DNA of 39,751 nucleotides from an uncultured Acidobacteriota bacterium (lineage in GTDB: Bacteria; Acidobacteriota; UBA6911; CAINFC01): positions 1-39,751 of the forward strand of contig CAINFC010000287.1 of assembly GCA_903847975.1 (NCBI GenBank), in the 5' to 3' direction. A program made the translations under genes and the position numbers. The notes under the pieces were generated by a model that worked only from the letters and a program-made list of their open reading frames with translations, had not been told where the DNA came from and did no database searches. Positions 5,203-39,727 of this stretch are shown piece after piece. Within the stretch, counting starts at the first letter, position 1. Each line of letters begins with the position of its first letter.

Positions 5203-8200
5203 TTATTGCGAATTATACAGGTTCGCGAAGAGGGTATTGGGGGGGCCAAGCAGTTTGTCAATCGCAAGGCAGCCCTCTTTAATACTCTGTCCAATATGAT
5301 CCAGCTTGATACTCTCCGGCTTGGAATCCACTCCCAGGCATTTTGCAGCGTCGCTGATTTTTCTTTTCTTTTCGAGTGGATGCCCGTGGCCGTTACGAAA
5401 ATGGCCGGCAACCTCTGCCCATCGATTGCTCATGCATTTGAAGAACGAGTCCTTGGCCGCAATTTGATCCCCTTTCAAAAGGTAGGTCGACCACCATTGG
5501 CCACTTGCCGTTCTTCCTTCATCCAGCTCTTTTTTCAGTCCGGATTTCTGCTCAATCAACAGGCCGATTGCATTTTCCATCAGGAAGGAGAGCCACATTA
5601 ATTTATCTGTCTTGGACAGGCAACCACCATACGCCGCGAGAACAAACGATTCGATATGCGCCCCGATGGGTTCCAGGATGGCAGGCATGTTACCCACTCG
5701 CCGGGCTATCCAGTCTTTTTGGGCGAATCTGGATTCCTTGTTCGCTAATTTTTCAAACTCGGCTGCCAATTGTCGGCCCGTAGGCCTCGCAGCGGGATCG
5801 TCGCTCGTCATTTTTCGTAAAAGCAACTTCAGTCCGGGAATCAAGTCTTTCCCGGTCTCCGTCGGCTCCAGACCTTTTTGCAGGGTGGTACCCAAGGACC
5901 AGACATCCCCCGCCGAGGTCCATTCGCGTCCGCTGGCCACTTCCGGAGGCACAAAACCCTGGGTTCCCAAATGACTGGTTTGGGGGCTCGGGGATAAATG
6001 GCGAGCCAGCCCGAAGTCAATCAATACCGGCTTCATCTCCCCTAATTCGCTGGGAGGTGAAACGATTACATTAGCCGGTTTGATATCTCGGTGAACCACC
6101 TTCTGTTTTTCTAAAAATGCCAGTACGCGGGATAGTGCCAGACCGATCGCAAGGATGGAAAACGGAGAAAAGGACGATTCCTTCATTGGCGTCCCTTCCA
6201 CCCAGTCATAAATGACAGCCCCAAGGTTCGGGTCCGATCTTACGAATCCTGCCTTTCGTAAAAGCGGAAAATACTGGCTTTCCTCTTTGCCGGCCGCTTC
6301 GTTCTTTAGTTCCTGCAGCAGCTGCGCCTCCCGCACAAACCGTTCTCTGGACGGTGCATCCGGGATTTGGACCAGCCGGACCGCTGAGAGTCTTCCATCC
6401 ACCACCCTATTGTGGATCGCTGCTGTTCCCCCAACGGCCATTGGCTTTTCATGCAGAATTTCCGCCGGCAGATATATTTCCTCAACGCCTAAAGTAAGGA
6501 TCAAACCGGTTTCTTCCTTGCTCAATTCCTGATACGATTTGGCATGCAGCATTTTTTCAAAGACTTCCCAGAGGAAATTTCCGCTACGATCGACCACTTG
6601 CTCGTCGCGCAGGCTATCAATTTCCCTCCGGAGGCGATCCTCCAGAATGCAGGCAGCGGGATTCCATTCCCTTAGCAACCGAGCCACTTCTTTTCGCCGC
6701 TCATCGAGGGTGTTCGCTTTTTGGTTGGCACGCGCCAGTGCCAAGGCTACGATATAGCAGGTTCTAGGCTTCCAGAAATTGATATCATCGCTTTCGTTTA
6801 AAATGTCCCGGACATACTGCCAAATGTCGTGATGCTCGCCTTCTTTCCCAAAGTCTGAAAGGAGGGTGTCAATTTCCGCGTCTACATCTTTCTCGAATAA
6901 CCATGTCTTTCCAACCTCCCGAAGGGTGCTTTGCAGCTTCTCGATAATCTGATTCAAAATAAGGAGATTGCAGGATACATTGGCCAGCCGTTCCCTTGCA
7001 TCGCTGGTGCTTTGCAGACCGCTCTGGCCCTTTGTTTCCCTCAGCAGGGATAGAATCTGCCACTCATCGATGCTGTTTGCGGAACAACTGGATAGCGCCG
7101 CACGAAGGTTGGCGCCCATCAGGCGGGGAAGATTGGCAGTTCCACAAAGTAGAATATGAAGGCCGGCATTTTTGGCGTTGGTTACCCCCCAGGCTTCCAG
7201 GCGGCTTTTTAGTTCATTCCCGATGGCTATGCCACGGGTCCCGCGAAAAAGGGCTTGGGCTTCGTCAATCAAGATGAAAAGCCGTTTGATTCCCCGGCTT
7301 TTTGCTGAACTGCGAACATTTTCGAAAGCGGCATGCGTAGGCAGACCACAGGTGTCATCCAGCCTGCCGTCAACGACCCAATCCCGGTCCGTTCGCATTT
7401 CGTCGAAAACAGAACCCCAGAATTCATTACTTTCCGGATGCAGGAGTGCGTTAAAGGGGCCGAACAGTTTCACTTCCGGATCCTGTTCCAAAGTGGCGCT
7501 AAGTGTCTTCAACAGACTTGTTTTGCCGAACCTCCTAGGGGCGTAGAGGAGGATGGATTTGTCGCTTTTCAGCAGGTCGCACACGTCGGCGTATTTCACT
7601 TCGATTCCCAAGGGACGGTCTTTGACCCGCTCCGGATCGACCGCATCCGGCAGCAGAGCCCGTAAAGTTGGCATACCCTCGCTGATGTTTTCCCAGTTGA
7701 CGATGTTGGTTTTCCGTTGCTCGCCGGGTAGGGTGACGATCAGAGCAAGCGACAGTCGCTTTCCGAAGCAGATTTCCCGTGGCAAAAAGAGCTTTATGGA
7801 AAGATCGTGCTTAGCCTCCTGTGCCTGGAGTTCAATCCGATTCGGATCGATATAACTTTCTCGGACCGCAGAAACATTCAGTGAAACTGCATCCAATTGG
7901 ATGGTCACGATGGTGCCGGCCTTCCCGGGGGGCAGGGTCAGCCTCACCGGACAGTGAACCGTCCCGATATTTTCTTCCATTCTCTTCCAGACCAAACGTG
8001 CTGCCTGCGGCACCATTTGTTCCGACTTAATAGTCCGACTTGAAATGGGGTGTTCCAGCCGAAGCAAACTGTGGGTTGAAGGATCTGGTTGGGGCTCGGA
8101 AGGAGCAGGGACCCGACTGAAATCGGATATTTCCTCGAAAAAGCACTGCGCTGGAACTCCTTCCGATCCGGTTAAGTGACAACGCAGAATCCTTTTCACT

Positions 8201-8601
8201 TCATTCCATTCCGGACTGCGGCTTCCTAGGAGTTCCTGCACAAAGGTTGCCTCTTGGCGGGCGGCTTTTTCATCCAGGCCAAGGAGGCTGGCTACCCATA
8301 TATGAATACGGGTCGAGGGTTCCAGCGGAAGAGTCAGGAGTTCCTTCAATATTCGCAAGGCTTCGTCCTCCTTGCGGCGAAACACCTTGTCCTCGAAAAA
8401 CCTGGGATTCAACTGGTTGACGATATGAACCGCACTGGCGCTTGCAAGGGTGGCTATCGGCAACAGGCCAAAAGCCTGAAAGATTCGTTTGGCCTGTTCC
8501 CCATGTGCCGGAGTAACCTTACGGTCTTTTTTGGGTCTGGCCAATCTCCGCGTTGCCGTGTCCAGCGATCGGAGTAAATTTCTTCCCTGGCCTTGGAACA
8601 C
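5203..8601 (-). CDS. ATPase-Ser/Thr protein kinase fusion, last gene of the defence operon
   Basis: A 1132-residue, three-part protein starting at GTG 8601 behind AAAAGGAG. Residues 1-335 are an unrecognised N-terminal region. Residues about 336-620 form a P-loop ATPase with Walker A APRRFGKTS (354-362), Walker B LFILIDEAQ (441-449) and sensor LLCGTAN (484-490). Residues about 711-955 are a Hanks-type kinase. They include a Gly-loop-like VGGTAAIH (723-730), helix C Glu 758, HRDIKPANV (837-845, catalytic D839), DFG (862-864) and VPPE (884-887). The VAIK lysine position reads AVRLV with Arg742 instead of Lys, so catalysis may be altered. The C-terminal 175 residues are helical and unassigned. 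It follows the second ATPase gene by 98 bases. Inferred role: sensor or effector kinase of the B'-C' extension, possibly phosphorylating host or island proteins on infection. Confidence 0.8.
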   Translation of the reverse strand: MFQGQGRNLLRSLDTATRRLARPKKDRKVTPAHGEQAKRIFQAFGLLPIATLASASAVHIVNQLNPRFFEDKVFRRKEDEALRILKELLTLPLEPSTRIHIWVASLLGLDEKAARQEATFVQELLGSRSPEWNEVKRILRCHLTGSEGVPAQCFFEEISDFSRVPAPSEPQPDPSTHSLLRLEHPISSRTIKSEQMVPQAARLVWKRMEENIGTVHCPVRLTLPPGKAGTIVTIQLDAVSLNVSAVRESYIDPNRIELQAQEAKHDLSIKLFLPREICFGKRLSLALIVTLPGEQRKTNIVNWENISEGMPTLRALLPDAVDPERVKDRPLGIEVKYADVCDLLKSDKSILLYAPRRFGKTSLLKTLSATLEQDPEVKLFGPFNALLHPESNEFWGSVFDEMRTDRDWVVDGRLDDTCGLPTHAAFENVRSSAKSRGIKRLFILIDEAQALFRGTRGIAIGNELKSRLEAWGVTNAKNAGLHILLCGTANLPRLMGANLRAALSSCSANSIDEWQILSLLRETKGQSGLQSTSDARERLANVSCNLLILNQIIEKLQSTLREVGKTWLFEKDVDAEIDTLLSDFGKEGEHHDIWQYVRDILNESDDINFWKPRTCYIVALALARANQKANTLDERRKEVARLLREWNPAACILEDRLRREIDSLRDEQVVDRSGNFLWEVFEKMLHAKSYQELSKEETGLILTLGVEEIYLPAEILHEKPMAVGGTAAIHNRVVDGRLSAVRLVQIPDAPSRERFVREAQLLQELKNEAAGKEESQYFPLLRKAGFVRSDPNLGAVIYDWVEGTPMKESSFSPFSILAIGLALSRVLAFLEKQKVVHRDIKPANVIVSPPSELGEMKPVLIDFGLARHLSPSPQTSHLGTQGFVPPEVASGREWTSAGDVWSLGTTLQKGLEPTETGKDLIPGLKLLLRKMTSDDPAARPTGRQLAAEFEKLANKESRFAQKDWIARRVGNMPAILEPIGAHIESFVLAAYGGCLSKTDKLMWLSFLMENAIGLLIEQKSGLKKELDEGRTASGQWWSTYLLKGDQIAAKDSFFKCMSNRWAEVAGHFRNGHGHPLEKKRKISDAAKCLGVDSKPESIKLDHIGQSIKEGCLAIDKLLGPPNTLFANLYNSQ

Positions 8602-8699
8602 GTCTTAACTCCTTTTGTCCGACAAGATACCTGGAATGGAAAAGAAAGGAATTACATTCCCATCATTTGGTCTTATTGCTTTCTTTACAAAAAATACTT

Positions 8700-11600
8700 T
8701 CATGTTTCAGCTACCATGTTAAGAAATTTCTTTCGCAAAGACGGCGATAACTCCTTGAATTTTTCAATTAGCCAGTCGATCTTGATTTCCTCAAGTCGGT
8801 TTCTTACCCGATCGGTTGCTTCATCCAGTTTTTTACGATGATCTTCGATCAATATAGGAGGTGGGCACATCAGTTTGTCATGCAACCGTGTCGCCTCACC
8901 TACGTCCATGGAATCGATGCGAACGGAATCCTGAGCGACAGCTAGAATCCACTTTTCACTTCTCGCTTTTCGCCGGTTTGAAACGAGCTGAGCGAGAGTT
9001 TTCATCGTCTTAGACACCGGCCAGGGGATCTCCCGATCCCGCAAATTAGCAGTAATTTGTTGCTCGACTTCCAAGCATGCTTTTTCATACTCATTCCAGG
9101 AAAGATTTTCATTGGATATCATTTCATAACCGAATTGATAGCGTTTTAAGGCGTGATGCTTCTGCTGGAAATCTGCCAGATCCTCTGGAAGGTTTTCATA
9201 AGCGCTGGTTAACTGGCTAATTCCTCTCATGATATTTACGATATCTTCTTCCGTTTGAATCTCCATCTGCCATAAAACCGTAGCCCTGGCTCTTATATTC
9301 GATTCTGCCACTTTCAATTGGACAATAAATTCCTCCAGTCGAGTATAAACCGATGGTAATTCCGGAAGATCTACACGTTGTCCCATCTCCCGCATCTTTT
9401 GAAGGAGATAACCTCCTACTTTTGTGAGCCCTTGGATCTCAGCAATACGAACAAGCTTCGGGTAATCACTATTAATTTTCATCCATGACTGCACTTCTCG
9501 CAGTAACTGTACTCCTTCGGCAAACAACTCGGATTTCCGAATTACTTTTTGAGTATGGTCTTCTGTCTTCTGAGCTTGTTCCAACAAATTGATTTTCTTC
9601 AGATTGTTTGAAACCTGATTCAGCATTTTATGTTTGAAATAGGCGGTTGCCGTTTGCGAATCATTTTTAGGTCGTTGCCCTGTAATCCATTGTGGAAAGT
9701 ACATGACAATTGCTTGCCTTGCTTTTTCGAAATGAGATTGGAAATGTTTAATTTGCGCGTCTGTCCAAAGCGGCTTTTCCCCTGTCATCTTATCTCTGAC
9801 TTCTTTCAAGTCTCCAGTACCCGATGCCAAAAATGAAACATCTTGCTTCTCCATCCCACGATCGATCTTCTCTAGTGCTTCTTGGATGGATTTTTGCACT
9901 CCAGAAAGAAGTTTAAGGGAAGACAAGGATTGTTCGCGGAGATGCAATTCCCGGTAGGTAAGAGTAGGGGGGATAGATATTCGTTTTTGAAGTTCTTCAG
10001 CTCGCAAAAGACAGTTCTGGCGACCCAGGTGTGTCTCTGTTTGTTCCCATTCATCCAGCAAGTTCTCCCATTCCGAGGAGGTTTCGCCCACATCAGTTAA
10101 AAATACTTTTGTCAAAACGGAAAGATCCAGAAACTTCCCACGAAAGATTTCTTGTTGAATCCATAGCGAAACAGCTATAGGAGATCCTTTACCTTCTACT
10201 ATCAGATCCTCATAACGCGGAGCTATGAATGTACCGAGGATTAAGCCAGCAGATGCCAGATTGGCGCCATAAGGTGGTTGGCAAATTTCAGCGACCATTT
10301 CCCCGATCGAAATTCTGCGTTTCTTATCTGCTATTGCGTCATCCCAACCTTCGGTAATGCGGCGAAGCGCAGTGTGACTCGGCCTTCTGGATACATCCCC
10401 GTTCTTATTGAAGATTCCCCATGAATCTTTCAGAACTGTTATGGCGCGATTTTTTGTCTTGGTAGGTTTGGCAAGCACACTGTTATAATCGAGCTTTCCA
10501 TGAAGTAATTCACTGGTCAGCTCACAGCAACAATCGGCTGCATTTCCTTTTGCTGTGCCAAAACCGTCAAATGGAAAAGGAATTGGTTGGGTATAGACCG
10601 AAGAAAATAGTTCCTTACCTATGGTCGCCAATCTTCCAGCACCATTCGGTTGCTTAAGACTTACACATATTCTTCTCTGCTTCAACAGAGCTTCCGTTCG
10701 CTCATATATTCCCTGCTTTAGTTTCTCCTTGTGCGCGCCCACGAGATTCCCAAATCGCACTTTGTCTTCTGGGCTCAGCTGTTCTTCCAAAATGTCATAT
10801 TCCGCCAGGGATTGCCCCAGAAGGCCTTTTTCATCGCATAAAAGCACAACCAGGATAGGGATCGTCTCGCGATTGTGTTCTTTCCCAGAGGATCGTATTT
10901 TATGAGTTGCATCCGCAAGCACGGCTTCCGGGTTGCGGCTTTGTTCAACATAGGTATAGATAATGGTACCTCGCGGTTCATCAACTGCAACCGATTTTGA
11001 CCAACGCTCTGCCGCAATTTTTATATTCTGGGCTAAATAATCTAGATTGGTGGTTACTGCCAGGTACTTCCATTCTCTGGTTAATATCCGGTTTTCTTCG
11101 GCAAAATCGCATTCCAGATCGCCTAATAACTCGCACCATATTCCTGCTTTGACTGCAAATAGACGGGCCATCCCAGCCTCATCATACTTTTCAGAAACTT
11201 TATGTCGTAAAAATGCTAGGAACTGAGTACGCGGGACTGCATCTCCTAAAATGTCATAGGCTTTGAATGCCTGGTCCCATTCCAGAACATTGTATTCATG
11301 CTGCAAGAGCCGAATTGCACCTTGGACGTCCTCCAAAGACAGCCCGGCCAATTCTCCCAGGGCATCCGCTGCATCTTTCTGGTCTGTGACCTGAAGGCCC
11401 AGCTTGGAAGCCAAAACCACTGCGCACAAAACCTTCTTTAGTTCTGTGGACAGTTTTGCCCCATGTCTGGCCGTTACCGAGGAGAAGGAATGCGTAATCG
11501 AACCTTGCTGTCCGGCTTCCTCCGATAAAAGTAGTTCCTGTAGGAGGGCTTCGGACCAAAGATCGACCGGGGCAAGAACGAAATTTCCTGAATCCGGGAC

Positions 11601-12977
11601 GGGCGTCTTTGCGTAACGATCCAAGACTTCCGCAAGCAGGGCTAGAGCGGATCGCTCCTGAAGATGTTTACCGGCTGCAGCGAGATAAAAGAGAAACCAC
11701 ATAGAATAGGGCGAAAGCGGCCAGCATCCTTTGCGGATCATAGTATGAAAAGGTCCAGGCTCGCTCCATAGTCGATGGTTTTTCGATTGAGGAAACCACC
11801 TGGAAAGCCGTGACAAAATGACCCGGGAATGTGCCCGTGCTGTCTCCTTCTCAAACCATCGGTCTAATGTGTCGCTATCCCGTTTTTCCAGTAAGTTGGC
11901 TATCAGGGTTTCTAAATTAATGGATAAGTACACGCGGATGGCAGCCTGATAGCGGGTAACATACCTCAGGATTTCATTGCGAAATTCAGGGGCGACTCGC
12001 TGCACATAGGCATTCAGCTCAAACTGGATGAATCCAACAAAGCAGGCATGGCTGGAATGAGCTTGGATGGCCTCGAACAAATCCTGAAGAACCCCACCAC
12101 CGGCAATTTGGCTCCGAATGGTAGCAAACTCGGTATATTTTCCAAATTCATCAAATAGGATCAGCAGGCTCCGATAAGGCTTCTTCTCGCCGCAATATTC
12201 CTTTATGGCGAGTTCAATTACTTCCCGCACCGATTCTCCTGCCAAAGCACGAATTGGCATTCCGTGATCCGCAAAATAATTATGCACCCGGGCATAAGTC
12301 ATCTCATCCTGCTGTTCTAGAGCCTGGATCAGTTCCTGCATACTGCTGGCATCGCAAAAGGAGAGAAGTTCCTTTATGACCGCATGATTGGACATACGGA
12401 TTAGGCCAGCGGCTTGCCCAAACCTTGGACGCAAATCTTCCAACGGCTTGGAATCATAGCCATCGCAACGCAGAACGCGAACGATCTGCCTGGTGATTTC
12501 GGCGGTAAGATCGAAACTCTGCACTCCATTAAGGGCAACGACTAGACAAGGCTTACCGCTTTCCTGCAAATAAGCACGGACCTCGGCTCCGATATTGTTA
12601 TCCGCCGCTTCTAAGGCAGAAAGGATTTGGTTGGCAGACTCCCCTTGCGGGCTTTGCAGCAGGGAGGCCAGCGTCAATCCCAGATGTGATTTTCCGGTTC
12701 CGTAACCGGCGATTGCCAGAGTAAAGGGTGCATCTTCCCTCCCATAACAGCGTCGAACAACTGCTCGGGTGAAATTGGCCGTGTCGATCAATCGGTGCCC
12801 GTGAGAGGACCCGACATCTTCCTGTTGCACTCCGTGGTATTGGGGGCCATGAAACACGAAGGCAGCACTGGCTGTTTTACTTTTAGCGATGTCCGTACTA
12901 AACCACTGGATGTTCACTGCCCCATTAAACAAACGGTCGCCACGGAATTGGACCACGTTGCACAAGTGAAGAGACAT
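8700..12977 (-). CDS. Second giant P-loop ATPase of the PT operon (SspC-like, C')
   Basis: A 1425-residue protein. Walker A is GYGTGKSH (91-98) and Walker B is LLILFDEFGK (271-280), followed by YTEFA. The SspC-like ATPase at 25391-28813 has Walker A GPYGVGKS and Walker B LLLLIDELGK followed by IFEYA, at comparable distances from the N-terminus. The shared DE-x-GK-x-x-E-x-A signature suggests the two are distant paralogues. The rest is long and helical, with coiled-coil-like stretches in the last 400 residues. RBS AAAGGA lies before ATG 12977. It starts 10 bases after the second DUF4007-like gene, repeating the DUF4007-ATPase order seen at the head of the operon. Inferred role: motor or scaffold partner of the upstream DUF4007-like protein. 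Biochemical function is unknown. Confidence 0.75.
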   Translation of the reverse strand: MSLHLCNVVQFRGDRLFNGAVNIQWFSTDIAKSKTASAAFVFHGPQYHGVQQEDVGSSHGHRLIDTANFTRAVVRRCYGREDAPFTLAIAGYGTGKSHLGLTLASLLQSPQGESANQILSALEAADNNIGAEVRAYLQESGKPCLVVALNGVQSFDLTAEITRQIVRVLRCDGYDSKPLEDLRPRFGQAAGLIRMSNHAVIKELLSFCDASSMQELIQALEQQDEMTYARVHNYFADHGMPIRALAGESVREVIELAIKEYCGEKKPYRSLLILFDEFGKYTEFATIRSQIAGGGVLQDLFEAIQAHSSHACFVGFIQFELNAYVQRVAPEFRNEILRYVTRYQAAIRVYLSINLETLIANLLEKRDSDTLDRWFEKETARAHSRVILSRLSRWFPQSKNHRLWSEPGPFHTMIRKGCWPLSPYSMWFLFYLAAAGKHLQERSALALLAEVLDRYAKTPVPDSGNFVLAPVDLWSEALLQELLLSEEAGQQGSITHSFSSVTARHGAKLSTELKKVLCAVVLASKLGLQVTDQKDAADALGELAGLSLEDVQGAIRLLQHEYNVLEWDQAFKAYDILGDAVPRTQFLAFLRHKVSEKYDEAGMARLFAVKAGIWCELLGDLECDFAEENRILTREWKYLAVTTNLDYLAQNIKIAAERWSKSVAVDEPRGTIIYTYVEQSRNPEAVLADATHKIRSSGKEHNRETIPILVVLLCDEKGLLGQSLAEYDILEEQLSPEDKVRFGNLVGAHKEKLKQGIYERTEALLKQRRICVSLKQPNGAGRLATIGKELFSSVYTQPIPFPFDGFGTAKGNAADCCCELTSELLHGKLDYNSVLAKPTKTKNRAITVLKDSWGIFNKNGDVSRRPSHTALRRITEGWDDAIADKKRRISIGEMVAEICQPPYGANLASAGLILGTFIAPRYEDLIVEGKGSPIAVSLWIQQEIFRGKFLDLSVLTKVFLTDVGETSSEWENLLDEWEQTETHLGRQNCLLRAEELQKRISIPPTLTYRELHLREQSLSSLKLLSGVQKSIQEALEKIDRGMEKQDVSFLASGTGDLKEVRDKMTGEKPLWTDAQIKHFQSHFEKARQAIVMYFPQWITGQRPKNDSQTATAYFKHKMLNQVSNNLKKINLLEQAQKTEDHTQKVIRKSELFAEGVQLLREVQSWMKINSDYPKLVRIAEIQGLTKVGGYLLQKMREMGQRVDLPELPSVYTRLEEFIVQLKVAESNIRARATVLWQMEIQTEEDIVNIMRGISQLTSAYENLPEDLADFQQKHHALKRYQFGYEMISNENLSWNEYEKACLEVEQQITANLRDREIPWPVSKTMKTLAQLVSNRRKARSEKWILAVAQDSVRIDSMDVGEATRLHDKLMCPPPILIEDHRKKLDEATDRVRNRLEEIKIDWLIEKFKELSPSLRKKFLNMVAET

Positions 12978-12987
12978 GATATTCCTT

Positions 12988-13836
12988 TCAAACCAGATCG
13001 TTATAAATGGTCATCCAGGCCTTTTCCAGGGGAGCTATCGGTCGTAAAAGCCAAGGTTCCATGTGTCGGTCTATTTCCAGCAATCCCTTCCGCTCAATGA
13101 GCTGCAGGACACGCTGTTGCAGGAAATCGTCCCAAGCGGGAATCAGCCGCCAACCGGCAGCCGCATCCAGTTCCTCAGTAGACACTTGGTTCTGCATTGG
13201 AAAATGATCTGTCATTAGCTGAATCATCCAGGCGCCGTACGCGAAGCCCATCTCCTCCAGAACAGGAGCCGGCTTCCTATGAATGATCCCCTTTGATTCG
13301 CTTAGGGCACCACATTTGCTGAAGGCGGCATCCTCCTGATAAGAGCCAACCAGGGGACCGATCAATCCGCTCTTATCTACACCATAGGTCATTCCGAGAT
13401 ACTCTTCTAGCGAGTTTCGGGAAAAGCACAACCCCAGGCCCACCGCTCCGACAAAAAAAGTGTGATACCAGACATCCGCTCCTGAAAGAGGGGAACAGAG
13501 GTTCAGGTGTGCGAGCCATTGGCTAATTCCTGTCTTAAGAAATGGGTCTTCCAACAGGACAATCCTTCCGAAAGGTGTCAAATCTATCTTTTGGGATGAA
13601 AGTCGACCAGAACCACTCAGGATAATTAAACCCATTCCACGGCAGTAATCCAAAATGGCTGGAACCTTCCCGCTAGAGGAACCTGTCGGTATACCCGTTG
13701 CGGCAGAGATTGCCTGATGGTCTCCGTATTTCCCGGAGGCTGCATAGCGCAGCATGGCGTGAATATATTGTCGCTCTGGTTTAAATGTCTTGTGAAAATT
13801 CCTGGGAAGACGATTGCTGTGCTTTGCTTCAGGCAT
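12988..13836 (-). CDS. Divergent DUF4007-like protein (second SspB-type protein, B')
   Basis: A protein of 282 residues from ATG 13836 (285 from GTG 13845; an AGAGGA lies just before the GTG). It follows the general plan of the DUF4007 protein that heads the operon. NFHKTF near residue 16 stands for FSGHQTF. SSSGKVPAILDYC (about 53-65) stands for GVGKNMVESIRYWC. DLTPFGRIVL and a Trp/Leu-rich SQWLAHLNLC helix follow, corresponding to KITPVAEKLL and LWLLHWLL. Identity is low, so homology is an inference from motif order. SspB is reported to nick DNA; whether this copy can do so is unknown. Its start overlaps the SspH stop (TGA at 13829), and the C' ATPase follows 10 bases later. Confidence 0.65.
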   Translation of the reverse strand: MPEAKHSNRLPRNFHKTFKPERQYIHAMLRYAASGKYGDHQAISAATGIPTGSSSGKVPAILDYCRGMGLIILSGSGRLSSQKIDLTPFGRIVLLEDPFLKTGISQWLAHLNLCSPLSGADVWYHTFFVGAVGLGLCFSRNSLEEYLGMTYGVDKSGLIGPLVGSYQEDAAFSKCGALSESKGIIHRKPAPVLEEMGFAYGAWMIQLMTDHFPMQNQVSTEELDAAAGWRLIPAWDDFLQQRVLQLIERKGLLEIDRHMEPWLLRPIAPLEKAWMTIYNDLV

Positions 13837-16800
13837 GGAAACCACGATCCTCTAACGAAGAAATCCTTATTCTTTGGGCTTGAAAAACTAGTTTGCCGGT
13901 CCATTCATTCAGGCTGCGCCCCAGAGACCAGCACTCCCCTATCTGCAGGGATGCTAAACGGTTGGCCCATTCCTGTTGGCTTACGCTGCTGATCGCATTA
14001 AACAGCAGCTGAGCGTGTTCGCGCATTTCGTTTTCCGTCGGCTTGAAGAATAGCTTATGTTCCGCCTGAAAGAGTCGGCTGACCCGGGCGTCGCTGACTC
14101 CTCCTACTCCCTTGACAGTTTGTGTTGCGGTGATCAACGCCAGACCATGTTTTCGACCTTCGGTCAGATACTTGGCAACCGGGGCATCCGGCCCAAGATC
14201 CAAGTTTTGTACTTCATCCAGAACGATGACACGAGGAGTCATCTTATTCCCATGGCTGCAAACGAAGGAATAAAGATCCCAGAGCACAAACTCGATCATT
14301 GCCCTAGCGGAGTGCTTATCCACTTTAAAAAACTGGAATACCTGACAGCGGCAAACAGGATCTGTGAATATGGGTTCCCAACCGATGCCTTGCTGATCCT
14401 GGGCGAAGGGATTCCCCAGGACGAAAGGCTTCAGTTTGCTAATGGTCGATTTCACCGTGGTTTGTGAACGATTGGGATCTCCAATGAATCCTTGCAGGAT
14501 AGTGAGCATTTGATCGAGTGTGAACTTATCCCCGGAGGCCTGCACCCCCTGGCTGATGGCGTCAATCAAAACCGGGAATTGCTGATTTCCCAGTTCATAT
14601 ACGCTCCTGAATATCGAGGCCACCCTTTTAGCAATGGTGAGGCAGGTATCTCGAAAGACCATGCCTTCTTCAACACTCTCCTGTGCTTTAAAAGGGCTGA
14701 TGGGCAGAGGCTGCTGCTGGATATAATGCTGTTTTGGCTTCAAGCAGGCTACTGTTCCCTTTTCCATTTTGCTGGGTAAAAAACCGTCGGTGTAATCGAT
14801 GATCAGTGAATTTTGACCCAACCGCCCCATTTCGCTAAGCAGGCACTGGATGGCATAGGTTTTCCCCATTCCGGATGTGCCGAAAACCAGCATATGGCGG
14901 TTGGCCAGTCCGGAATGTCCGAATTCCCAGTAAACCGGTTTGGCGCCATGGGCTGTTATCCCAAGTAATATGCGTTGTGGCATTTCCGTTACCGTAACCG
15001 AGCTTTGGTCCAGATCGGTCATCGTGCTGGTGCTTGTAGCTACACCGCTTCCTGATTCTGAATCTTGCTGGGACATCGATGAGGAAGAGTCCTGCGAGCT
15101 AATGCTTACAATTTCTCCACTCCCTTCTCCTGGCTCTTTAAATGGTCCGAGCGAGGGAGTATTCTCATAATCGTCATCCTCCAAATAGTCGTCTTGTTTG
15201 GCTTCTTCTTCATCCTCTTCCTCTTTATCCTCCGGATCGTACCAATCGAGCGCATCCTCATCCTCATCGATTGCTGTGGACTGTTCGATGTCCACCAGAA
15301 AGTCACCGACATTTTTGTTGCTAGGAACGACTTGGGCCGCCCATTCTGCCCACGCCTGCGATCCATTGCCATTCTCCATGGCTAGCTTACGGACATATTC
15401 ACTGCCGATTGTATAGAAATTCACATTGATATCGTTCAACCCGGCTGAATTCCATGATCCAATTCGAACGATCTGATCGGATTGATCTTCACTCCAAAAA
15501 GCAAAGACGGAGGCTTGCCATTCAACGGAATAATCCCCTTCCGCCAGTCGTTCCAATGCGGAAAGCACTTTGGACTGCTTTTGCTGAGCTACCGCTGCTT
15601 TACTGGCAATCAGACGATGCAGTTGCAGCCACCAATAACGCTGGTCGGGGCGTTCCTGCTCGGAAGTCTTTTCCTGATGGGGGCAAAAAGCCTGGGTTAA
15701 GACCATAAGCCCATTGTGGATTTGATCCCTGGCGCTGACAAGATGCTTCTCATCTTGGTGGGCAACTTTGCATTCGATCAGGTGCAGCCTCAGCTGGATT
15801 CGGTTTTCTTTGTTCAGCCATGCCACCAACCACAGCAAATCGGGCCGTCTCTCGTTTTTCGCTAGATCGAACCAATGTCGATAAGCATCGAGGGATACGA
15901 GGTGATCGCAAAGAACATCCCCTTTCTCCCGAAGCATCATTCGGGTCAGGCAATAGGCCATGAAATCATGGATATAACAGCCAACACCGGTAGCACGAAC
16001 CAGGGAAAGGCCGGATAGCTCATGCGCAGCCCGCAATACTCCCTTGGCGATCACCTTGCATTGGTCCTCGCTCCACCCGCAACCTCCATATAATTCATGG
16101 ATGGATGCGGATAGCCTCACGTGAATATCAGCTAGTGAGAATTGTTCCGTAGAAATCGTATAGTTGGCTTCTCCATGGGATCCTACTCCCGAGCCGAAAC
16201 CGATAATTTCCCGCTCTTGATCTTTGCTTCCCGAAGGAATCCGCAGCAGCCGCTCATCCATGTTTGGGTCGATGCAAACCACCCATTCGGCTTTCTTATG
16301 CAGGGCGGCGACCACACCTTGCCATGGGGAAAAATCTCCCACTCCCTGAACGATAAACTGCTTCCCGGGCTGTACTCCCTGGTTTTTAAGGCGATGCATG
16401 ACTTGGGAGTGTAAAGTACACAGAGAAAACTGACGATTGCTGATCACCCGGTATCGCTTGTAGCTATCCGTTGGGTGAAGGACCGAACAGCATGCTTTTT
16501 CCAGTATGGGAAACTTTAAACTGCGAGTGGTAATATCGAAGGGCTCAACTTCCGTGAATTTGTTGCCTCCTTTTCCGGCACCGATGAAATCGTAGAAGAT
16601 GGCAATATCCGCTTCAAAACAATCCTGGATCATTCTTTGAAAAAGGTCGGTCTTCCGCGGTTCGACTACCCGGTGAGCTACGGAAAAGCGGCAGTAGCGA
16701 TACACCTGAAATTTCTTTTCCGTCTCGGCCTCTTCCCATCGCTCCTGCCACTGTCCGATCCAGCGAGCAACGTCGACATCATCTCCGGAATTCGTGAACA

Positions 16801-19321
16801 CGGTCACGCTCACCGCATAAGGCTTACGGTTTTCCGGTCTTAGGATAAAGTACCGCTTGTCCTTAGGATCGGCCAGTTTATTCACAAACTGATGTACGGC
16901 AGCAATCACCGGCTGGATATCCTGATTGCGGAAAACAGCCAGGTTTATGCCGTCCCTGGCATGGGGGTGAAGCCGAAAATAGTCGGTCATCAGGCGGAAA
17001 AGCAGCTTTGATTCCCGGCTCTCCCGGAACATTTCTGTGTCGGTTACTTCTTCTTCGCTGCTCTCCTCATAGCGAACCAGAAGTCGCGTGGAAAGAGTCG
17101 TCTCCCTCTCTTCCGGCATCCCGATTCGATGGATCAATTCTGAACCGCGAACATTTGTGTCCAGGTTTTGATCCTCGTTGTACAACAAGCCCACCAACGG
17201 AGAATGAATGGCAGCCATGCTCATCGTACCGGCCCAAATGGACTCACTGAAGCCTTTGTTGCGATCCGCGCGCTCGAGCTCCAAAGACAAGGCGCTTTCG
17301 AAACTTCGAAAAAGAAAGATGACCTGAGCTTCCAGCATCTCCAATACAGCCGGATGAAGAATGGTAGCGATTGCGGATTGCTCGTAGGTCTCGCATCCCC
17401 AGACGGAGCAGTCCTTACCTTTTCGTCGTTGTACAACCAGAAAGAGTCGCAAAAGCATACCAGCCATTTGGGTATCGGTGCCATTCGGATCCTCTAGGAA
17501 ATACCGGTAGCAATCCGCGTAGGCCTGCCTTAACTCCTTCCAGGAATCTCCGAATAATGCAGCGTGCAACCCCTGAGTTTGCGCCAGTGTTAAATATTTG
17601 GCGTATTTGTCCGCTAATTTTTTCAAGACCGGAAGCAGGGGATCCTTGGAAGCAAGCCATTCCGGTTGCAACAGATTGGTCCATTTATGTTCATCCGGCC
17701 GAGCTTCCCGGATGCAGTGCATCATGACCCGACGTGTCTCTTCTTCGTCGGTCACATAAAGCAACTCCTCATAGTACGGCAAATGAAAGACCGGCAGTTT
17801 CCGATGGAAATCCTCGCTGCGCATGGCCTCGTTGGCCCATTGAATTAAAGATTCCGCAAGGCGATAGGAATGTATTTCCGGTAGGCGCCATCCGAATCGC
17901 CGGCGGAAAGTTTTCTCGGAATCACTCAAGGAGAGCTCAACCGAAAATTCGAGGAGGGGTTCTGCGGTCTTAGCATAGCTTGTCTGCTTCGGTTCAGCGA
18001 GGCTGGCGCTAATGACTATGTCTTCTCCTTCCGAGTTGGAAAGCGAGATTTGTTTCTGCAGCAGGTCGTCTACCCCGCCGATAAGACGGTTCAGATAACC
18101 TTTGGCCAGCTCGTTTTTATCCAGGATAATATCCGCTCCTTCGTCGGAGTCGGACCCTTCATAGTCGTGCTTGAATTTATCGGAGATGATTTTGACTCCC
18201 CGAACATTGCTCTCAAAAAATCTTTTATCCCGCCAAAGATCTCGCCATGTCATCCAGATGGCATGCAGCGCCATTTCGATAGGGCCGCCGGATAATTTCC
18301 GCAGGGGATCCTTAGGTTTTGGCTCCTGTTTTTTTCGAAATTTGAGAATTTTGTCGACAATAGCGACAAAGTCGCATTGCATCAACCGCTCCCGATCGGA
18401 TATTTCCTCCCGCTCGATATAGTTTCGCAGACCATTCAGCAGAGATTCCGTATCCGCATAAGTCCCAAGCAACTCCGGTGTATCGATCGCTATGTCTAAC
18501 TCTTCGCCGTCGCTGACTGCTTTCTGAAGCTGGCCAATGGTTCGGAGAGCCTTATCGCGATGGGTGGCATCCAGAAACATCGCATAAGAGAAAAAGGCTT
18601 GGGCCTTTTCAATATACGGCGATAGTGTCGTTCTTTTCTTGCCAATCGCGAAGCTGCTGAAATGAGGAAGATAAAAGATCTTCATCTGGTCGAGCAGGTG
18701 GCGCGCCACATCCCGCCAGGATCCACAGGAACTTAAATCCAACTCCCGGAGCCATTTATCGATTCCCAGAAGATCGGTGCACCCCTGGTCGAGGAGCGGC
18801 TTAAGCAACCGGTCAAACTCTTTCAACTCCGAAGAGTCCAATCCCTCCATTCCGATTGATTTCATTTTTTTTGCAATCCAGGCTTGGAAGGAGCCTTTCA
18901 TGCTTTCCCTCCAAATGTTCTCCGGACTACAGAAATGAAAGTCAGCCAGGCTGCCGGCATCCGTCACCCGATCGCCGCCGCACAAAACCACCAAATTGAT
19001 CTTCCCTGGCTTAGGAGGAAGGTTTCTATAAAAAGTTGGGTTACGTTCTTCCTTGTCGTCATCCAGCCACATCTGCTGTTTGGCTGTCTTTATTCCGGCA
19101 GGCGTCCAATTGCTGCAGGTCATTCCGGCAATTTTGAAAAGCAGGTGGAGATCCGGCGCTCCCAGGCATCGGCTGGTGAAGGTCGAAGCCAGATCAATCG
19201 TGGCCGATTCAATTAAGGTAGGTACAACCGCCAACAGCCGTCGCTCTGGAGAACGCTCTTTGCGAAGACGGGAAATTTTCCGTTCGATATAGTCCCACGC
19301 CGATTCGCTGAAATAGCTCAT
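13829..19321 (-). CDS. sspH: DptH/SspH-like PT-dependent restriction protein with nuclease-like and HerA-like ATPase domains
   Basis: A very large protein (1830 residues) occupying the DptH/SspH position after F and G. The C-terminus is a HerA/FtsK-type ATPase with Walker A GTSGMGKT (1481-1488), Walker B RVIVLDEVQ (about 1692-1700) and ALITATQ. Before it lies a linker that is very acidic (about 1350-1386) and then Ser-rich (about 1398-1430). Before that is a PD-(D/E)XK-like arrangement: D1161 in RRPDLLW, E1183-x-K1185 in LIECKVA, and Q1200 in a following helix. This would be the DNA-cutting centre. The first 1100 residues are unassigned. The start overlaps the SspG stop (ATGA at 19318-19321). 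Known of the family: DndFGH and SspFGH restrict DNA lacking PT, and SspFGH nicks DNA. The residue-level nuclease assignment is mine. Confidence 0.8.
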   Translation of the reverse strand: MSYFSESAWDYIERKISRLRKERSPERRLLAVVPTLIESATIDLASTFTSRCLGAPDLHLLFKIAGMTCSNWTPAGIKTAKQQMWLDDDKEERNPTFYRNLPPKPGKINLVVLCGGDRVTDAGSLADFHFCSPENIWRESMKGSFQAWIAKKMKSIGMEGLDSSELKEFDRLLKPLLDQGCTDLLGIDKWLRELDLSSCGSWRDVARHLLDQMKIFYLPHFSSFAIGKKRTTLSPYIEKAQAFFSYAMFLDATHRDKALRTIGQLQKAVSDGEELDIAIDTPELLGTYADTESLLNGLRNYIEREEISDRERLMQCDFVAIVDKILKFRKKQEPKPKDPLRKLSGGPIEMALHAIWMTWRDLWRDKRFFESNVRGVKIISDKFKHDYEGSDSDEGADIILDKNELAKGYLNRLIGGVDDLLQKQISLSNSEGEDIVISASLAEPKQTSYAKTAEPLLEFSVELSLSDSEKTFRRRFGWRLPEIHSYRLAESLIQWANEAMRSEDFHRKLPVFHLPYYEELLYVTDEEETRRVMMHCIREARPDEHKWTNLLQPEWLASKDPLLPVLKKLADKYAKYLTLAQTQGLHAALFGDSWKELRQAYADCYRYFLEDPNGTDTQMAGMLLRLFLVVQRRKGKDCSVWGCETYEQSAIATILHPAVLEMLEAQVIFLFRSFESALSLELERADRNKGFSESIWAGTMSMAAIHSPLVGLLYNEDQNLDTNVRGSELIHRIGMPEERETTLSTRLLVRYEESSEEEVTDTEMFRESRESKLLFRLMTDYFRLHPHARDGINLAVFRNQDIQPVIAAVHQFVNKLADPKDKRYFILRPENRKPYAVSVTVFTNSGDDVDVARWIGQWQERWEEAETEKKFQVYRYCRFSVAHRVVEPRKTDLFQRMIQDCFEADIAIFYDFIGAGKGGNKFTEVEPFDITTRSLKFPILEKACCSVLHPTDSYKRYRVISNRQFSLCTLHSQVMHRLKNQGVQPGKQFIVQGVGDFSPWQGVVAALHKKAEWVVCIDPNMDERLLRIPSGSKDQEREIIGFGSGVGSHGEANYTISTEQFSLADIHVRLSASIHELYGGCGWSEDQCKVIAKGVLRAAHELSGLSLVRATGVGCYIHDFMAYCLTRMMLREKGDVLCDHLVSLDAYRHWFDLAKNERRPDLLWLVAWLNKENRIQLRLHLIECKVAHQDEKHLVSARDQIHNGLMVLTQAFCPHQEKTSEQERPDQRYWWLQLHRLIASKAAVAQQKQSKVLSALERLAEGDYSVEWQASVFAFWSEDQSDQIVRIGSWNSAGLNDINVNFYTIGSEYVRKLAMENGNGSQAWAEWAAQVVPSNKNVGDFLVDIEQSTAIDEDEDALDWYDPEDKEEEDEEEAKQDDYLEDDDYENTPSLGPFKEPGEGSGEIVSISSQDSSSSMSQQDSESGSGVATSTSTMTDLDQSSVTVTEMPQRILLGITAHGAKPVYWEFGHSGLANRHMLVFGTSGMGKTYAIQCLLSEMGRLGQNSLIIDYTDGFLPSKMEKGTVACLKPKQHYIQQQPLPISPFKAQESVEEGMVFRDTCLTIAKRVASIFRSVYELGNQQFPVLIDAISQGVQASGDKFTLDQMLTILQGFIGDPNRSQTTVKSTISKLKPFVLGNPFAQDQQGIGWEPIFTDPVCRCQVFQFFKVDKHSARAMIEFVLWDLYSFVCSHGNKMTPRVIVLDEVQNLDLGPDAPVAKYLTEGRKHGLALITATQTVKGVGGVSDARVSRLFQAEHKLFFKPTENEMREHAQLLFNAISSVSQQEWANRLASLQIGECWSLGRSLNEWTGKLVFQAQRIRISSLEDRGFHA

Positions 19322-21021
19322 GATCGTTTCTCCCTCTTAGATCCAGGATTGTGCACCAGGGCACATGCATCCGATAGCTGGATCAGCAATCCCGACGCAT
19401 CGAGCATTTCCAGGAGCCAGGCATCCCGGCCGTTTCCACTACTGCCTTCCTTCTTCCCCTCCGCCCAGGCACTTGCCCGACTGAATCCATCGTTATCGAA
19501 CACCAGACCATAGCGGGCTTCGACAAGCTGCTTGAACCGGTCATAGGTCAATCGCCCATCCGCTGGAACGGTTGTTACCACTAACAGACGCAGTAGCAGT
19601 TCATTTAGAGTAAAGCGGGCACCTGAGCCTCGCCACGGAACGATTAATCCGATCTTTTTTGCCATGCTCAAAAAAAGTTTGGAACCATATCGGCTGTCAG
19701 CCTCTTTCAGGATTTTTTCCTTTTCTTTGGCGTCTTTGTGCTGGACGAGTCCAAGATAATCTTTTGCGTCTTGGATCTGGTCGCACCGAAGGGCACGGTA
19801 GATCATCTTTTCCGCCATTTTTACGGTATGTCTCGAGAGCCTTTTCGCCCCGGAGTCGTTCTCTTCCGGCGCGGTAACGGCAAACCGGTAGCCGGGCCAG
19901 GCAATCTGGTGTTCTAAAGGCGAGACACGAACACTTTGCAAGGAGAGACTTCGCAGCAATTGCATTGCGCAGGCCAGCTCCATAAGACGAAGCCGTTCGA
20001 TTACATCTAGCTCGGCAAGGCAAATGCGGCGCAGTTCCGTGGCAAATAGATATCCTTCCTGCCAACTGGCAATCGGACAATATCCAGCACTGACATAGCG
20101 CAAGTCGTTATCTTTCCCATCGGTACATTCAACCGTCTTATTATCATCGAGAGCATCAATGAATTCTGCAATTGCAGTGAGTGTAGGTGGGCAAACCTCC
20201 AAAAGTTGATCTAGGTGTTGCTGCAGTTCATCATGTAAATACAAAGGATGGGTTTCTTCATCCAGCAATCCGACACCCGTTTTTTCATTCCACTCAAGAA
20301 CAGACATGAGTGTTTGTTTTAATGCATTGCAAACTTGCAAGTAGAGGACTTCTCCGCCGCGGCCTAGAAACCTATGTTTATTCATTGTCAATAATATGTT
20401 TCGGTTTCCAAGCATTTCTTCCCAATCGCTTGGTGGCGTTTTACGAGCTGCTGTCTCATTCCATATTGTTTCTCCCGCTAAGAGACCTTTACAGATTGGT
20501 AGAAAACTTTGTGCGCACCACGTTCTTCCAAACCCGGCACCCTGGAAACCTAAAAATAAATTTTCCAGGGTGCGAATAACGTCGCTTTCTCTACCGTTTT
20601 CGGCTAACTTAATCGCCTCATGTAGTTTTTGTACAAGAATTTTATATTGCTCTCGATGCACAACATGGCGTGAATCTAGACGTGAAGCCCCCATAAAGGC
20701 GAAAAGCTTCAGATTGAGACGTGCTTTGGGAGAATAGTAAAGTTTGCAGTTTCGTTTCCAATTGTAAAGTGTACCTATTGGCGGGAGTGGGGCAGAAAAA
20801 GAAGGCTGATTGCTATCTCTGGCTTTTCCATCTAGAACATTACTATTATCTATTTCACCATTTTCACTATCTTCAATCCTTTTTGCGGAAGTTGCGATAA
20901 GTAAAAATTCGATTAAAAGTTCTATTGCCGACTGATCAGCGAAAAACCGTTTTCCAAATAAACGGATCGCAGGATTAATTTCTTGTTCAGACGGTGAAGG
21001 GAACATCTCATCATAAAACAT
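19318..21021 (-). CDS. sspG: DptG/SspG-like PT-dependent restriction protein
   Basis: A 567-residue protein between the F- and H-type genes, the fixed order of DndFGH/SspFGH modules. I see no catalytic motif. The chain is largely helical, with a C-terminal winged-helix-like part (PADGRLTYDRFKQLVEARYG onward) resembling what occurs in DptG. The start is unambiguous: GGAGGTGAGCG directly precedes ATG 21021, embedded in the last codons of SspF (overlap 11 bases), so F and G are translationally coupled. The stop overlaps the SspH start. It is probably a structural subunit bridging F and H. Assignment depends mainly on position and size. Confidence 0.75.
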   Translation of the reverse strand: MFYDEMFPSPSEQEINPAIRLFGKRFFADQSAIELLIEFLLIATSAKRIEDSENGEIDNSNVLDGKARDSNQPSFSAPLPPIGTLYNWKRNCKLYYSPKARLNLKLFAFMGASRLDSRHVVHREQYKILVQKLHEAIKLAENGRESDVIRTLENLFLGFQGAGFGRTWCAQSFLPICKGLLAGETIWNETAARKTPPSDWEEMLGNRNILLTMNKHRFLGRGGEVLYLQVCNALKQTLMSVLEWNEKTGVGLLDEETHPLYLHDELQQHLDQLLEVCPPTLTAIAEFIDALDDNKTVECTDGKDNDLRYVSAGYCPIASWQEGYLFATELRRICLAELDVIERLRLMELACAMQLLRSLSLQSVRVSPLEHQIAWPGYRFAVTAPEENDSGAKRLSRHTVKMAEKMIYRALRCDQIQDAKDYLGLVQHKDAKEKEKILKEADSRYGSKLFLSMAKKIGLIVPWRGSGARFTLNELLLRLLVVTTVPADGRLTYDRFKQLVEARYGLVFDNDGFSRASAWAEGKKEGSSGNGRDAWLLEMLDASGLLIQLSDACALVHNPGSKREKRS

Positions 21022-23341: not shown

Positions 23342-23386
23342 TAAAATGGGACCATTCACTTATGTTCTTTAAATAACTTTGATTTA

Positions 23387-24529
23387 TTATTGGATTTGTT
23401 TAATTGCAGATTCGAGATGTGAGAGAGCAATATTTACGTCATCCTCAGTATTGTAACGACCCAAAGAAATTCTTATTGCACAACGGGCAAGGTCCGAAGG
23501 GATATTCAAGGCAAGCAAGACATGTGATGGCAATAATGTTCCGGAATTACAGGCAGACCCAATACTCATGCAAAGCAGAGGGGCTCGAGCAAGCAATAAA
23601 TCGGCTGGAATGCCAGGAAAAATTATATTTGAAGTACCTGGCAGCCTATCGGCCAAACGGCAAATGATTTGTGCGTTGGGGAAAATCCTGGCAATTCTTT
23701 CCTCAATTTTTGCTCTTAGCTTCCCAATTTTTGCCATATCGGGAACAGTAAATTCTTTACACAGTTTACACGCAGCACCTAACCCAACTACGCCTGGCAC
23801 ATTCAATGTGCCAGGACGCAAATAATCCTCTTGTCCGCCCCCATACATTAAGGGAGCAGAAAGAAATTTTTTTAGACTTTCACGAACCACCAAAAAGCCA
23901 ATACCTTTTGGGCCATATGCCTTATGTGAACTAAACGATAGAAGATCTGCACGAAATTCATTAACGGAAACTGGGATTTTCCCCAATGCTTGTGCGGCGT
24001 CACAATGAAAAAGTGCTCCACATGAATGTGCTACATCTGCAATATCACCTACTGGTTGAATGACGCCAGTTTCATTGTTCGCGGCTTGAACAGACAGGAG
24101 CAAAGTATCCTCATCAACTTCGGCTTTTAATTTATTTAAATTGATTTGTCCCCCGTTTTCAACTGGAACTCGACATATCGTATAGCCTTTCGACTGTAAT
24201 GCTGCGCATGGGCCTAAAACGGACTTATGTTCGACAGTAGAAGTCACTATCTTGCGCTTTTTTAATACAGATTGGGCTACTCCTAAAATTGAAAGATTGT
24301 TAGATTCTGTCGCCCCACTCGTAAAAATAACCTCTGTTGGGCTACAACATACACAATCAGCAATTAATTCACGTGCTAGCGCAATGGACTTGCCTGCAGT
24401 TCTACCGTAGTAATGTGGACTAGCCGGATTTCCGAACTTCTCTCTAAAAAAAGGTACTATAGCTTCTACGACTTCAGGGGCACACTGTGTCGTCGAATTA
24501 TTATCCAAATAAATAAATCTTGAGTTCAT
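23387..24529 (-). CDS. sspA: Cysteine desulfurase (SspA/DndA/IscS-like)
   Basis: A 380-residue PLP enzyme that takes sulfur from L-cysteine as a persulfide and passes it to the SspD-type protein for PT synthesis. Visible class-V aminotransferase features are YLDNNSTT at the N-terminus, H101 (STVEHKS), D177 (FHCDAAQ) and the PLP lysine K203 in SSHKAYGPKG. The catalytic Cys327 lies in IGSACNSG. I chose ATG 24529 because family members begin just before YLDNN; an upstream ATG at 24577 would add 16 residues and overlap the SspD gene's end by 26 bases. It is AT-rich compared with its large neighbours. Its placement between D and F inside the operon means modification and restriction genes are co-transcribed. 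Confidence 0.92.
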   Translation of the reverse strand: MNSRFIYLDNNSTTQCAPEVVEAIVPFFREKFGNPASPHYYGRTAGKSIALARELIADCVCCSPTEVIFTSGATESNNLSILGVAQSVLKKRKIVTSTVEHKSVLGPCAALQSKGYTICRVPVENGGQINLNKLKAEVDEDTLLLSVQAANNETGVIQPVGDIADVAHSCGALFHCDAAQALGKIPVSVNEFRADLLSFSSHKAYGPKGIGFLVVRESLKKFLSAPLMYGGGQEDYLRPGTLNVPGVVGLGAACKLCKEFTVPDMAKIGKLRAKIEERIARIFPNAQIICRLADRLPGTSNIIFPGIPADLLLARAPLLCMSIGSACNSGTLLPSHVLLALNIPSDLARCAIRISLGRYNTEDDVNIALSHLESAIKQIQ

Positions 24530-24551
24530 GTGATATAGGAAAGCACACACT

Positions 24552-25388: not shown

Positions 25389-25390
25389 GA

Positions 25391-39652: not shown

Positions 39653-39727
<75 letters not shown>

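What the first reader, a model, noticed from the sequence alone, without database searches (positions are those of the whole stretch)
5203..13845. B'-C'-kinase extension: a second DUF4007-like/ATPase pair plus a kinase on a PT defence operon
Downstream of a complete SspBCD-A-FGH set, in the same strand and overlapping, come a second DUF4007-like protein, a second giant ATPase sharing the DE-x-GK-x-x-E-x-A Walker B signature with SspC, and an ATPase-kinase fusion. The order repeats the SspB-SspC head of the operon but without sulfur-transfer genes. I know SspFGH and SspE as partners of SspABCD, but I do not know this trio as a described component. It may be a second effector arm that senses nicked or PT-depleted DNA through B'-C' and signals by phosphorylation.
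Basis: partly seen in the sequence, partly recalled or inferred. Interest (0 to 1): 0.93.

Follow-up and report, generated by a model that had tools for sequence, protein, structure and literature searches.

The report
Second DNA-scanning pair in sulfur defence
This bacterial anti-virus operon marks its own DNA with sulfur and carries a second, separate version of its DNA-scanning machine; related operons in distant bacteria keep that second machine beside the DNA-cutting genes, which suggests one machine for marking and another for attacking, while the extra kinase gene is a local add-on.

Summary
After sspB-C-D-A-F-G-H, on the same strand, lie B' (12988-13845), C' (8700-12977) and an ATPase-kinase, K (5203-8601). 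B' is a remote SspB/DUF4007 relative and C' a remote SspC/BrxC-like ATPase (profile-profile E 1.9e-11 and 4e-31). The pair, not the trio, is the unit. Strong C' matches occur in 22 genomes (one a remnant). H-B'-C' is contiguous in 19 of 19 testable loci, with sspD on the same stretch in 15 of 15. K is whole only in the window (1 of 30 genomes); kinase domains sit inside SspF in 5 of 15 systems. Thirteen canonical SspFGH plasmid loci show no B'C' within the stretches fetched, and their SspG is a separate clade. Distant cousins of the pair precede PglZ-like and BrxL genes in BREX type 4-like loci. In two Pseudanabaena plasmids with 84-94% identical flanks, a B''-C''-PglZ-like-BrxL cassette and an F-G-H-kinase cassette replace each other, so the pair travels with the restriction side. 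Best reading: a restriction-dedicated DNA-scanning engine, separate from the writer's SspB-SspC. Function is untested. I found no description of it in the held literature searched.

The parts
28804..29760 (-). sspB (DUF4007; writer target recognition/nickase), 318 aa
   Evidence: DUF4007 1.9e-79; SspB 1.7e-89; SspB crystal 6juf E 4.4e-42
25391..28813 (-). sspC (BrxC-like ATPase of the writer), 1140 aa
   Evidence: PADLOC SspC 1074.6 bits; Walker A TGPYGVGKS, Walker B LLLLIDELGK
24552..25388 (-). sspD (PAPS-reductase-like sulfur transfer)
   Evidence: SspD 2e-109
23387..24577 (-). sspA (cysteine desulfurase)
   Evidence: SspA 5.9e-132
21011..23359 (-). sspF, 782 aa, with an N-terminal extension weakly resembling the PT-DNA (sulfur) binding domain, about residues 29-100 (23060-23275), and a P-loop at residue 247
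   Evidence: SspF 5.1e-30 over residues 188-493; NF045808 PT-DNA-binding restriction endonuclease 2.9e-6, 26.6 bits, far below its cut-off of 180; P-loop
19318..21021 (-). sspG (divergent clade)
   Evidence: SspG 2.9e-19; tree
13829..19321 (-). sspH: PD-...-ECK nuclease-like motif (residue 1160) and HerA/FtsK ATPase (Walker A at 1481), 1830 aa
   Evidence: DndH 5.4e-47, SspH 8.5e-22; both motifs in 15 of 15 SspH of B'C' systems
12988..13845 (-). B': second, divergent SspB/DUF4007-like winged-helix protein, 285 aa
   Evidence: profile-profile with SspB prob 97.3, E 1.9e-11; SspB crystals 6lb9 and 6juf are the only Foldseek rows with probability 1.00, on a low-confidence model
8700..12977 (-). 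C': second SspC/BrxC-like ATPase, 1425 aa; Walker A residues 90-97 (AGYGTGKS), Walker B from about residue 272 (LILFDEFGK)
   Evidence: profile-profile with SspC prob 99.9, E 4e-31 over 798 columns; motifs
8605..8703 (-). 32-codon ORF filling the C'-K gap; its ATG overlaps the C' stop, and it ends just before K's GTG
   Evidence: not evidence of a gene
5203..8601 (-). K: AAA ATPase (346-494) plus Ser/Thr-kinase-like domain (about 745-965); accessory, not conserved
   Evidence: AAA_22 1.7e-8, Pkinase 1.8e-19; mad6 6.8e-27; whole in 1 of 30 genomes

Best explanation
The operon is a PT restriction-modification system with two DNA-scanning engines of the same ancestry. SspB-SspC, with SspD and SspA, write the phosphorothioate. 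B'-C' belong to the restriction side: C' is a BrxC/SspC-type AAA+ ATPase that loads on or scans DNA, and B' is its winged-helix DNA-reading partner, probably no longer a nickase. They would find target sites and hand unmodified DNA to SspFGH. The SBD-like N-terminus of SspF would read PT; SspH would cut (PD-ECK motif) and pump DNA (HerA motor). K is an accessory effector or regulator, interchangeable with other downstream genes and with kinase domains built into SspF. Shown here: homology, gene order, conservation, the separate clade, absence from the canonical SspFGH loci checked, and the cassette swap. Inferred: DNA scanning, PT discrimination, loss of nicking by B', and the role of K.
For: H-B'-C' contiguous in 19 of 19 testable loci; sspD on the same stretch in 15 of 15. 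B'~SspB and C'~SspC by profile comparison. Walker B in 13 of 13 C'; Walker A AGYGTGKS in 4 of 4 aligned C' that cover it. Canonical SspFGH loci show one SspC and at most one SspB each and no B'C' in the 25-31 kb fetched (0 of 13), and their SspG is a separate clade at 100/100. Cousins of the pair sit before PglZ-like and BrxL genes in G647, Thermomicrobium and Pseudanabaena galeata. Pseudanabaena L082 and L108 share flanks at 83.5% and 93.9% nucleotide identity, while B''-C''-PglZ-like-BrxL and F-G-H-DUF262-kinase replace each other between them. C' and C'' join at 100/100 apart from all 26 SspC. Residues invariant in 12 SspB (R28, K34, E109, D171, G260, F263) are not the consensus in 18 B', while H22, F25, D105, W115, H118 and Y179 are kept. 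In type I BREX, BrxC binds dsDNA with ATP, and BrxA binds BrxC and inhibits its DNA binding (PMC13326643, abstract and passages).
Against: V. anguillarum SspFGH damages unmodified DNA and blocks phage without B'C' (PMC8092258, parts 1-2 read), so FGH as such does not need the pair. No biochemistry exists. In type I BREX one BrxC serves both modification and restriction, so B'C' could serve the writer too, or read a different site. AlphaFold models were poor (mean pLDDT 59.6 and 51.1), and by E-value the top Foldseek row for B' is an unrelated acyltransferase (8e4y). The SBD call is weak: 2.9e-6 in the window, 4 of 5 further SspF tested (one at 0.0067), none in G101; SspF of G235 and G1564 begins differently. 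The cousins are distant; the Pseudanabaena C'' shows no Walker A by pattern, the three PglZ-like proteins of Thermomicrobium, Pseudanabaena and Annamia score below the Pfam cut-off, and an SBD-like protein is seen in 1 of 3 loci. The C/C' split is flagged as long branches meeting. The 15 systems in the SspG tree were found through C', so association is partly by selection.
Confidence: 0.52

Rival explanations
1. B'-C' is a second writer head: it recruits the shared SspD/SspA sulfur-transfer enzymes to a second sequence motif, or to the opposite strand, giving two PT specificities in one cell.
For: B' and C' are homologues of the writer's target-recognition and ATPase subunits, and SspD is present on the same stretch in 15 of 15 testable loci.
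Against: The Pseudanabaena swap moves the cousin pair with PglZ-like and BrxL genes, not with the BCD writer. Several SspB-invariant residues are not kept in B'. No second SspD is seen on those stretches, and the pair follows SspH in 19 of 19 loci.
Confidence: 0.16
2. The pair is a regulator or safety lock: B'-C' binds SspFGH and holds it off until invading DNA is met (as BrxA binds BrxC and reduces its DNA binding), so its loss makes FGH toxic.
For: BrxA inhibits BrxC DNA binding in type I BREX; unrestrained SspFGH is toxic to PT-lacking cells.
Against: Conserved ATPase motifs suggest an active motor or switch; the 13 canonical SspFGH loci checked have no such pair nearby.
Confidence: 0.2
3. 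One reading: B'-C'-K is a three-gene signalling arm that senses nicked or PT-depleted DNA and acts by phosphorylation through K.
For: Kinases recur in PT systems: in SspF of this clade, in the Pseudanabaena FGH cassette and in DndF (PMC10853773, passages).
Against: K is whole in 1 of 30 genomes; the gene after C' differs between the loci examined; K's beta-3 lysine appears to be arginine.
Confidence: 0.08

Closest known systems
SspABCD-SspFGH (PMC8092258, parts 1-2 and passages read)
   Same: Writer BCD(A) with F-G-H restriction genes next to it
   Different: The 13 canonical loci checked show no B'C'; their SspG is a separate clade. Window SspF (782 aa) has an extra SBD-like N-terminus compared with Aminobacter and Falsirhodobacter SspF (614 and 603 aa), judged by length and match position. 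SspH is closest to DndH in its C-terminal part
BREX type 4 (PMC12839542, section 34)
   Same: PT writer with SspB/C/D homologues; three BREX4-like loci carry a distant cousin of B'-C'
   Different: The window has FGH and no PglZ or BrxL. The paper names DUF4007 and BrxC as components and mentions no second pair in the passages read
HerA/FtsK capture and BRC systems (PMC10853773 passages; PMC12839542 section 36)
   Same: ORC/Cdc6-type ATPase, triple-winged-helix protein and HerA motor occur together
   Different: BRC as described has PglZ and DUF6079 and lists no PT writer; the five C' scanned have no meaningful Pfam match
MADS (Mad6 kinase), PglW and DndF kinases
   Same: K and the NERD-kinase-kinase module inside SspF match Mad6 and PglW
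   Different: No MADS operon here; only single domains are shared

Membership tests
SspB / DUF4007 family (B') | Pfam DUF4007 above the gathering score | tested here: not met
   21.3 bits against a cut-off of 27
SspB / DUF4007 family (B') | Remote homology by profile and fold | tested here: met
   prob 97.3, E 1.9e-11; 6lb9 and 6juf Foldseek probability 1.00, TM about 0.41, on a low-confidence model; an unrelated chain ranks first by E-value; SspB is not among the 50 VIA-align rows shown
SspB / DUF4007 family (B') | Residues invariant in SspB | tested here: not met
   R28, K34, E109, D171, G260, F263 are not the consensus in 18 B'; others such as H22, D105, W115, H118 are kept (alignment of remote families)
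SspB / DUF4007 family (B') | DNA-nicking activity needed for PT | not testable with these tools
   no biochemistry; the active-site residues are not known to me from any call
SspC / BrxC ATPase (C') | N-terminal AAA+ with Walker A and B, long region alignable to SspC | tested here: met
   AGYGTGKS and LFDEFGK; 798 columns aligned to SspC
SspC / BrxC ATPase (C') | Falls among SspC sequences in a tree | tested here: not met
   C' plus C'' on one side of a 100/100 branch, 26 SspC on the other
SspFGH system | F, G and H next to sspBCD | tested here: met
SspFGH system | SspG within the canonical clade | tested here: not met
BREX type 4 | PglZ and BrxL | tested here: not met
   none among the ten operon proteins in Pfam; seen only in the cousin loci
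MADS | mad1-8 gene set | tested here: not met
   among the ten operon proteins only K matches mad6 and the HerA part of SspH matches mad8

The most novel reading that the evidence does not exclude
A class of phosphorothioate defence in which writing and restriction have separate, anciently diverged copies of the same DNA-scanning engine (winged-helix reader plus BrxC-type ATPase). The restriction-side engine is a portable module that works with different nuclease arms (SspFGH or PglZ-BrxL). Such systems would split genetically the two jobs that one BrxC does in type I BREX.
Probability: 0.43. Interest if true: 0.76.

Novelty: new variant of a known kind. Interest (0 to 1): 0.6.

Why it matters
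How these systems keep modification and restriction apart while sharing an ATPase is open; PMC13326643 (abstract) proposes competing BrxC assemblies. Operons with one pair for each job would let the two be tested by simple gene removal. The pair also bears on the 2,211 of 2,678 sspBCD loci reported without SspFGH or SspE partners (PMC8092258, passage), because three BREX4-like PT loci seen here carry the same kind of pair.

Tried and rejected
Structure of C': a 960-residue model from five sequences was too poor to use (mean pLDDT 51.1) and no fold search was run on it. The B' model was weak (59.6); the 50 VIA-align rows shown are mostly MarR/PadR-type winged helices over residues about 22-105, and SspB is not among them. 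By sequence profile, B' and C' have no relevant match in the PDB, and the window SspC found none. No meaningful Pfam match for five C' at E up to 0.1. No relative of C' among the phage records or of C' or SspG in the viral contigs (pattern-limited). On plasmids C' has three distant hits and B' none. In the window's own phylum only the window itself matches (1 of 347; 1 of 100 relatives). Reciprocal test, SspG of this clade searched in 20 and 39 genomes: three hits, all known C' carriers and two of them search centres, so it is weak. Weak C' hits not followed up: G121, G175, G476, G706, G713, G813, G1485. Not counted as testable: G929 (a remnant of C'), G975 and G1643 (contigs cut). A DNA-level search for canonical SspH in E. 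coli genomes found none. A search for MADS papers gave nothing usable. The BREX type 4 gut paper is not held.
Full report
What is there. The window carries, on the minus strand, sspB-C-D-A-F-G-H followed by B' (12988-13845), C' (8700-12977) and K (5203-8601). Junctions range from a 26-nt overlap to a 27-nt gap down to C', then a 98-bp gap before K. That gap holds a 32-codon ORF whose ATG overlaps the C' stop, and K's GTG has an AAAGGAG sequence in front of it, so K may still be translated from the same message.

B' and C' are real but remote relatives of SspB and SspC. Single-sequence hits are weak. Comparing family profiles gives probability 97.3 and E 1.9e-11 for B' against SspB (221 columns), and 99.9 and 4e-31 for C' against SspC (798 columns, 15% identity). 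A low-confidence model of B' still finds the two SspB crystal structures with Foldseek probability 1.00, although an unrelated chain ranks first by E-value. Walker B is found in 13 of 13 C' and Walker A AGYGTGKS in the 4 of 5 aligned C' that cover it. B' keeps several SspB-invariant positions but not R28, K34, E109, D171, G260 and F263; whether these belong to the nickase site I could not test.

The pair, not the trio, is conserved. One scan of genome contigs gave four loci: a Desulfobulbaceae, a Clostridiales, an Anaerolineaceae and a Kiritimatiellae assembly. Profile searches of samples from their phyla gave strong C' matches in 5 of 395, 8 of 348, 1 of 350 and 7 of 337 genomes (each count includes the search centre), and 1 of 347 in the window's own phylum, the window itself: 22 genomes. 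In 19 of the 22 the sequence upstream of C' is held, and in all 19 B' and then SspH lie directly upstream on the same strand (B' of G852 is shortened). The other three are two cut contigs (G975, G1643) and a remnant (G929). SspD is on the same stretch in 15 of 15 loci whose contig reaches that far, in G1564 by a weak match (2e-8). Of the four cut loci, G100 and G102 showed no SspD anywhere in assemblies of 2.9 and 1.6 Mb; G1502 and G1672 were not tested. Order is B-C-D-(A)-F-G-H-B'-C' where all are visible, except G1564, which has F-G-H-B'-C' first and then D, B, C, A. The gene after C' changes in the loci examined: methyltransferase in L001 and G399, an SMC-like ATPase in L004, alanyl-tRNA synthetase in G1499, K in the window. 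A full-length K match was reported only for the window among 30 genomes; the other matches are kinase domains.

Kinases still belong to the theme. In 5 of 15 SspF proteins of these systems K's kinase region matches inside SspF, and a sixth (G1564) has a kinase-like HCDIKPDN motif. G399 and G1499 SspF carry NERD and two kinase stretches, and G399 matches Mad6 at 3e-101. This parallels DndF, for which NERD and tandem inactive/active kinases were described (PMC10853773, passages). In K, HRD and DFG are present but the beta-3 lysine appears to be arginine.

The pair goes with a distinct SspFGH clade. Thirteen plasmid loci with canonical SspFGH (13 of the 33 records, chosen by hand for variety) were scanned over the 25-31 kb fetched with B' and C' profiles: none has a second pair. 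In a tree of SspG, the 15 systems with B'C' and the 13 without are two sides of one branch (100/100). The 15 were found through C', so this shows that the clades differ, not that every member of the clade has the pair. SspF of the B'C' clade has an N-terminal extension weakly resembling the PT-DNA-binding domain: NF045808 at 2.9e-6 in the window and hits in 4 of 5 further SspF given, one of them only 0.0067, all far below the curated cut-off. SspH has PD-...-ECK and a HerA Walker A in 15 of 15.

The pair goes with the restriction side. Distant cousins of B'C' lie before PglZ-like and BrxL genes, each time with an SspB-C-D writer, in G647 (from the phylum of the Anaerolineaceae assembly), Thermomicrobium roseum and Pseudanabaena galeata. 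An Annamia plasmid has a C'' split over separate ORFs with B'', PglZ-like and BrxL. Against close equivalence, the Pseudanabaena C'' shows no Walker A by pattern. In the ATPase tree the three cousins join C' (100/100) apart from all 26 SspC (the tool warns that long branches meet). Two Pseudanabaena plasmids give a natural experiment: L082 3628-10640 and 21109-23889 match L108 6166-13095 (83.5%) and 24596-27383 (93.9%), while the stretch between is B''-142aa-C''-PglZ-like-BrxL in one and F-G-H-DUF262-kinase in the other. The writer stays and the restriction cassette differs; the second pair moves with the cassette.

Mechanism. By analogy with BrxC, which binds double-stranded DNA in an ATP-dependent way and makes alternative assemblies with BrxA and BrxB-PglZ (PMC13326643, abstract and passages), I propose that C' with B' scans DNA for the restriction complex, that the SBD-like part of SspF reads PT, and that SspH cuts and translocates. 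All of this is inference. SspFGH of V. anguillarum works without the pair, so B'C' is a specialisation of this clade. The rivals are a second writer head and a regulatory lock.

Novelty. I found no paper among those held that describes a second SspB-SspC pair. Seen: PMC8092258 parts 1-2 of 5 and passages; PMC12839542 abstract, sections 16, 34, 36 and passages; PMC10853773 abstract and passages; PMC13326643 abstract and passages. The BREX type 4 gut study is not held, and subscription papers and supplements were not searched. I file it as a new variant of a known kind.

Noticed in passing
window 8605-8703 (-): A 32-codon ORF exactly bridges C' and K: its ATG overlaps the C' stop and it ends just before K's GTG. 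It may couple translation or be chance.
   Followed up: partly
window 30407-31387 (-): WYL-WCX regulator upstream of sspB, the type of protein (BrxR) known to regulate BREX (title PMC9122589 in the listing).
   Followed up: no
window 34182-35183 (-): Phage-repressor-like protein (HTH plus peptidase S24) further upstream; a tRNA-Thr lies at 39653-39727.
   Followed up: no
L041 7089-11717; L068 7272-11780: SspF proteins with SBD-like N-terminus, NERD nuclease, two kinase stretches and P-loop in one chain; that of G399 is strongly Mad6/PglW-like.
   Followed up: partly
L082 10641-21108 versus L108 13096-24595: Exchange of a BREX-like restriction cassette for an SspFGH cassette between closely similar Pseudanabaena PT plasmid backgrounds.
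   Followed up: yes
L059 4160-5341 and 5999-7180 (G852): B'C' system with C' in three pieces separated by two 393-aa ORFs on the other strand, possibly insertion elements.
   Followed up: no
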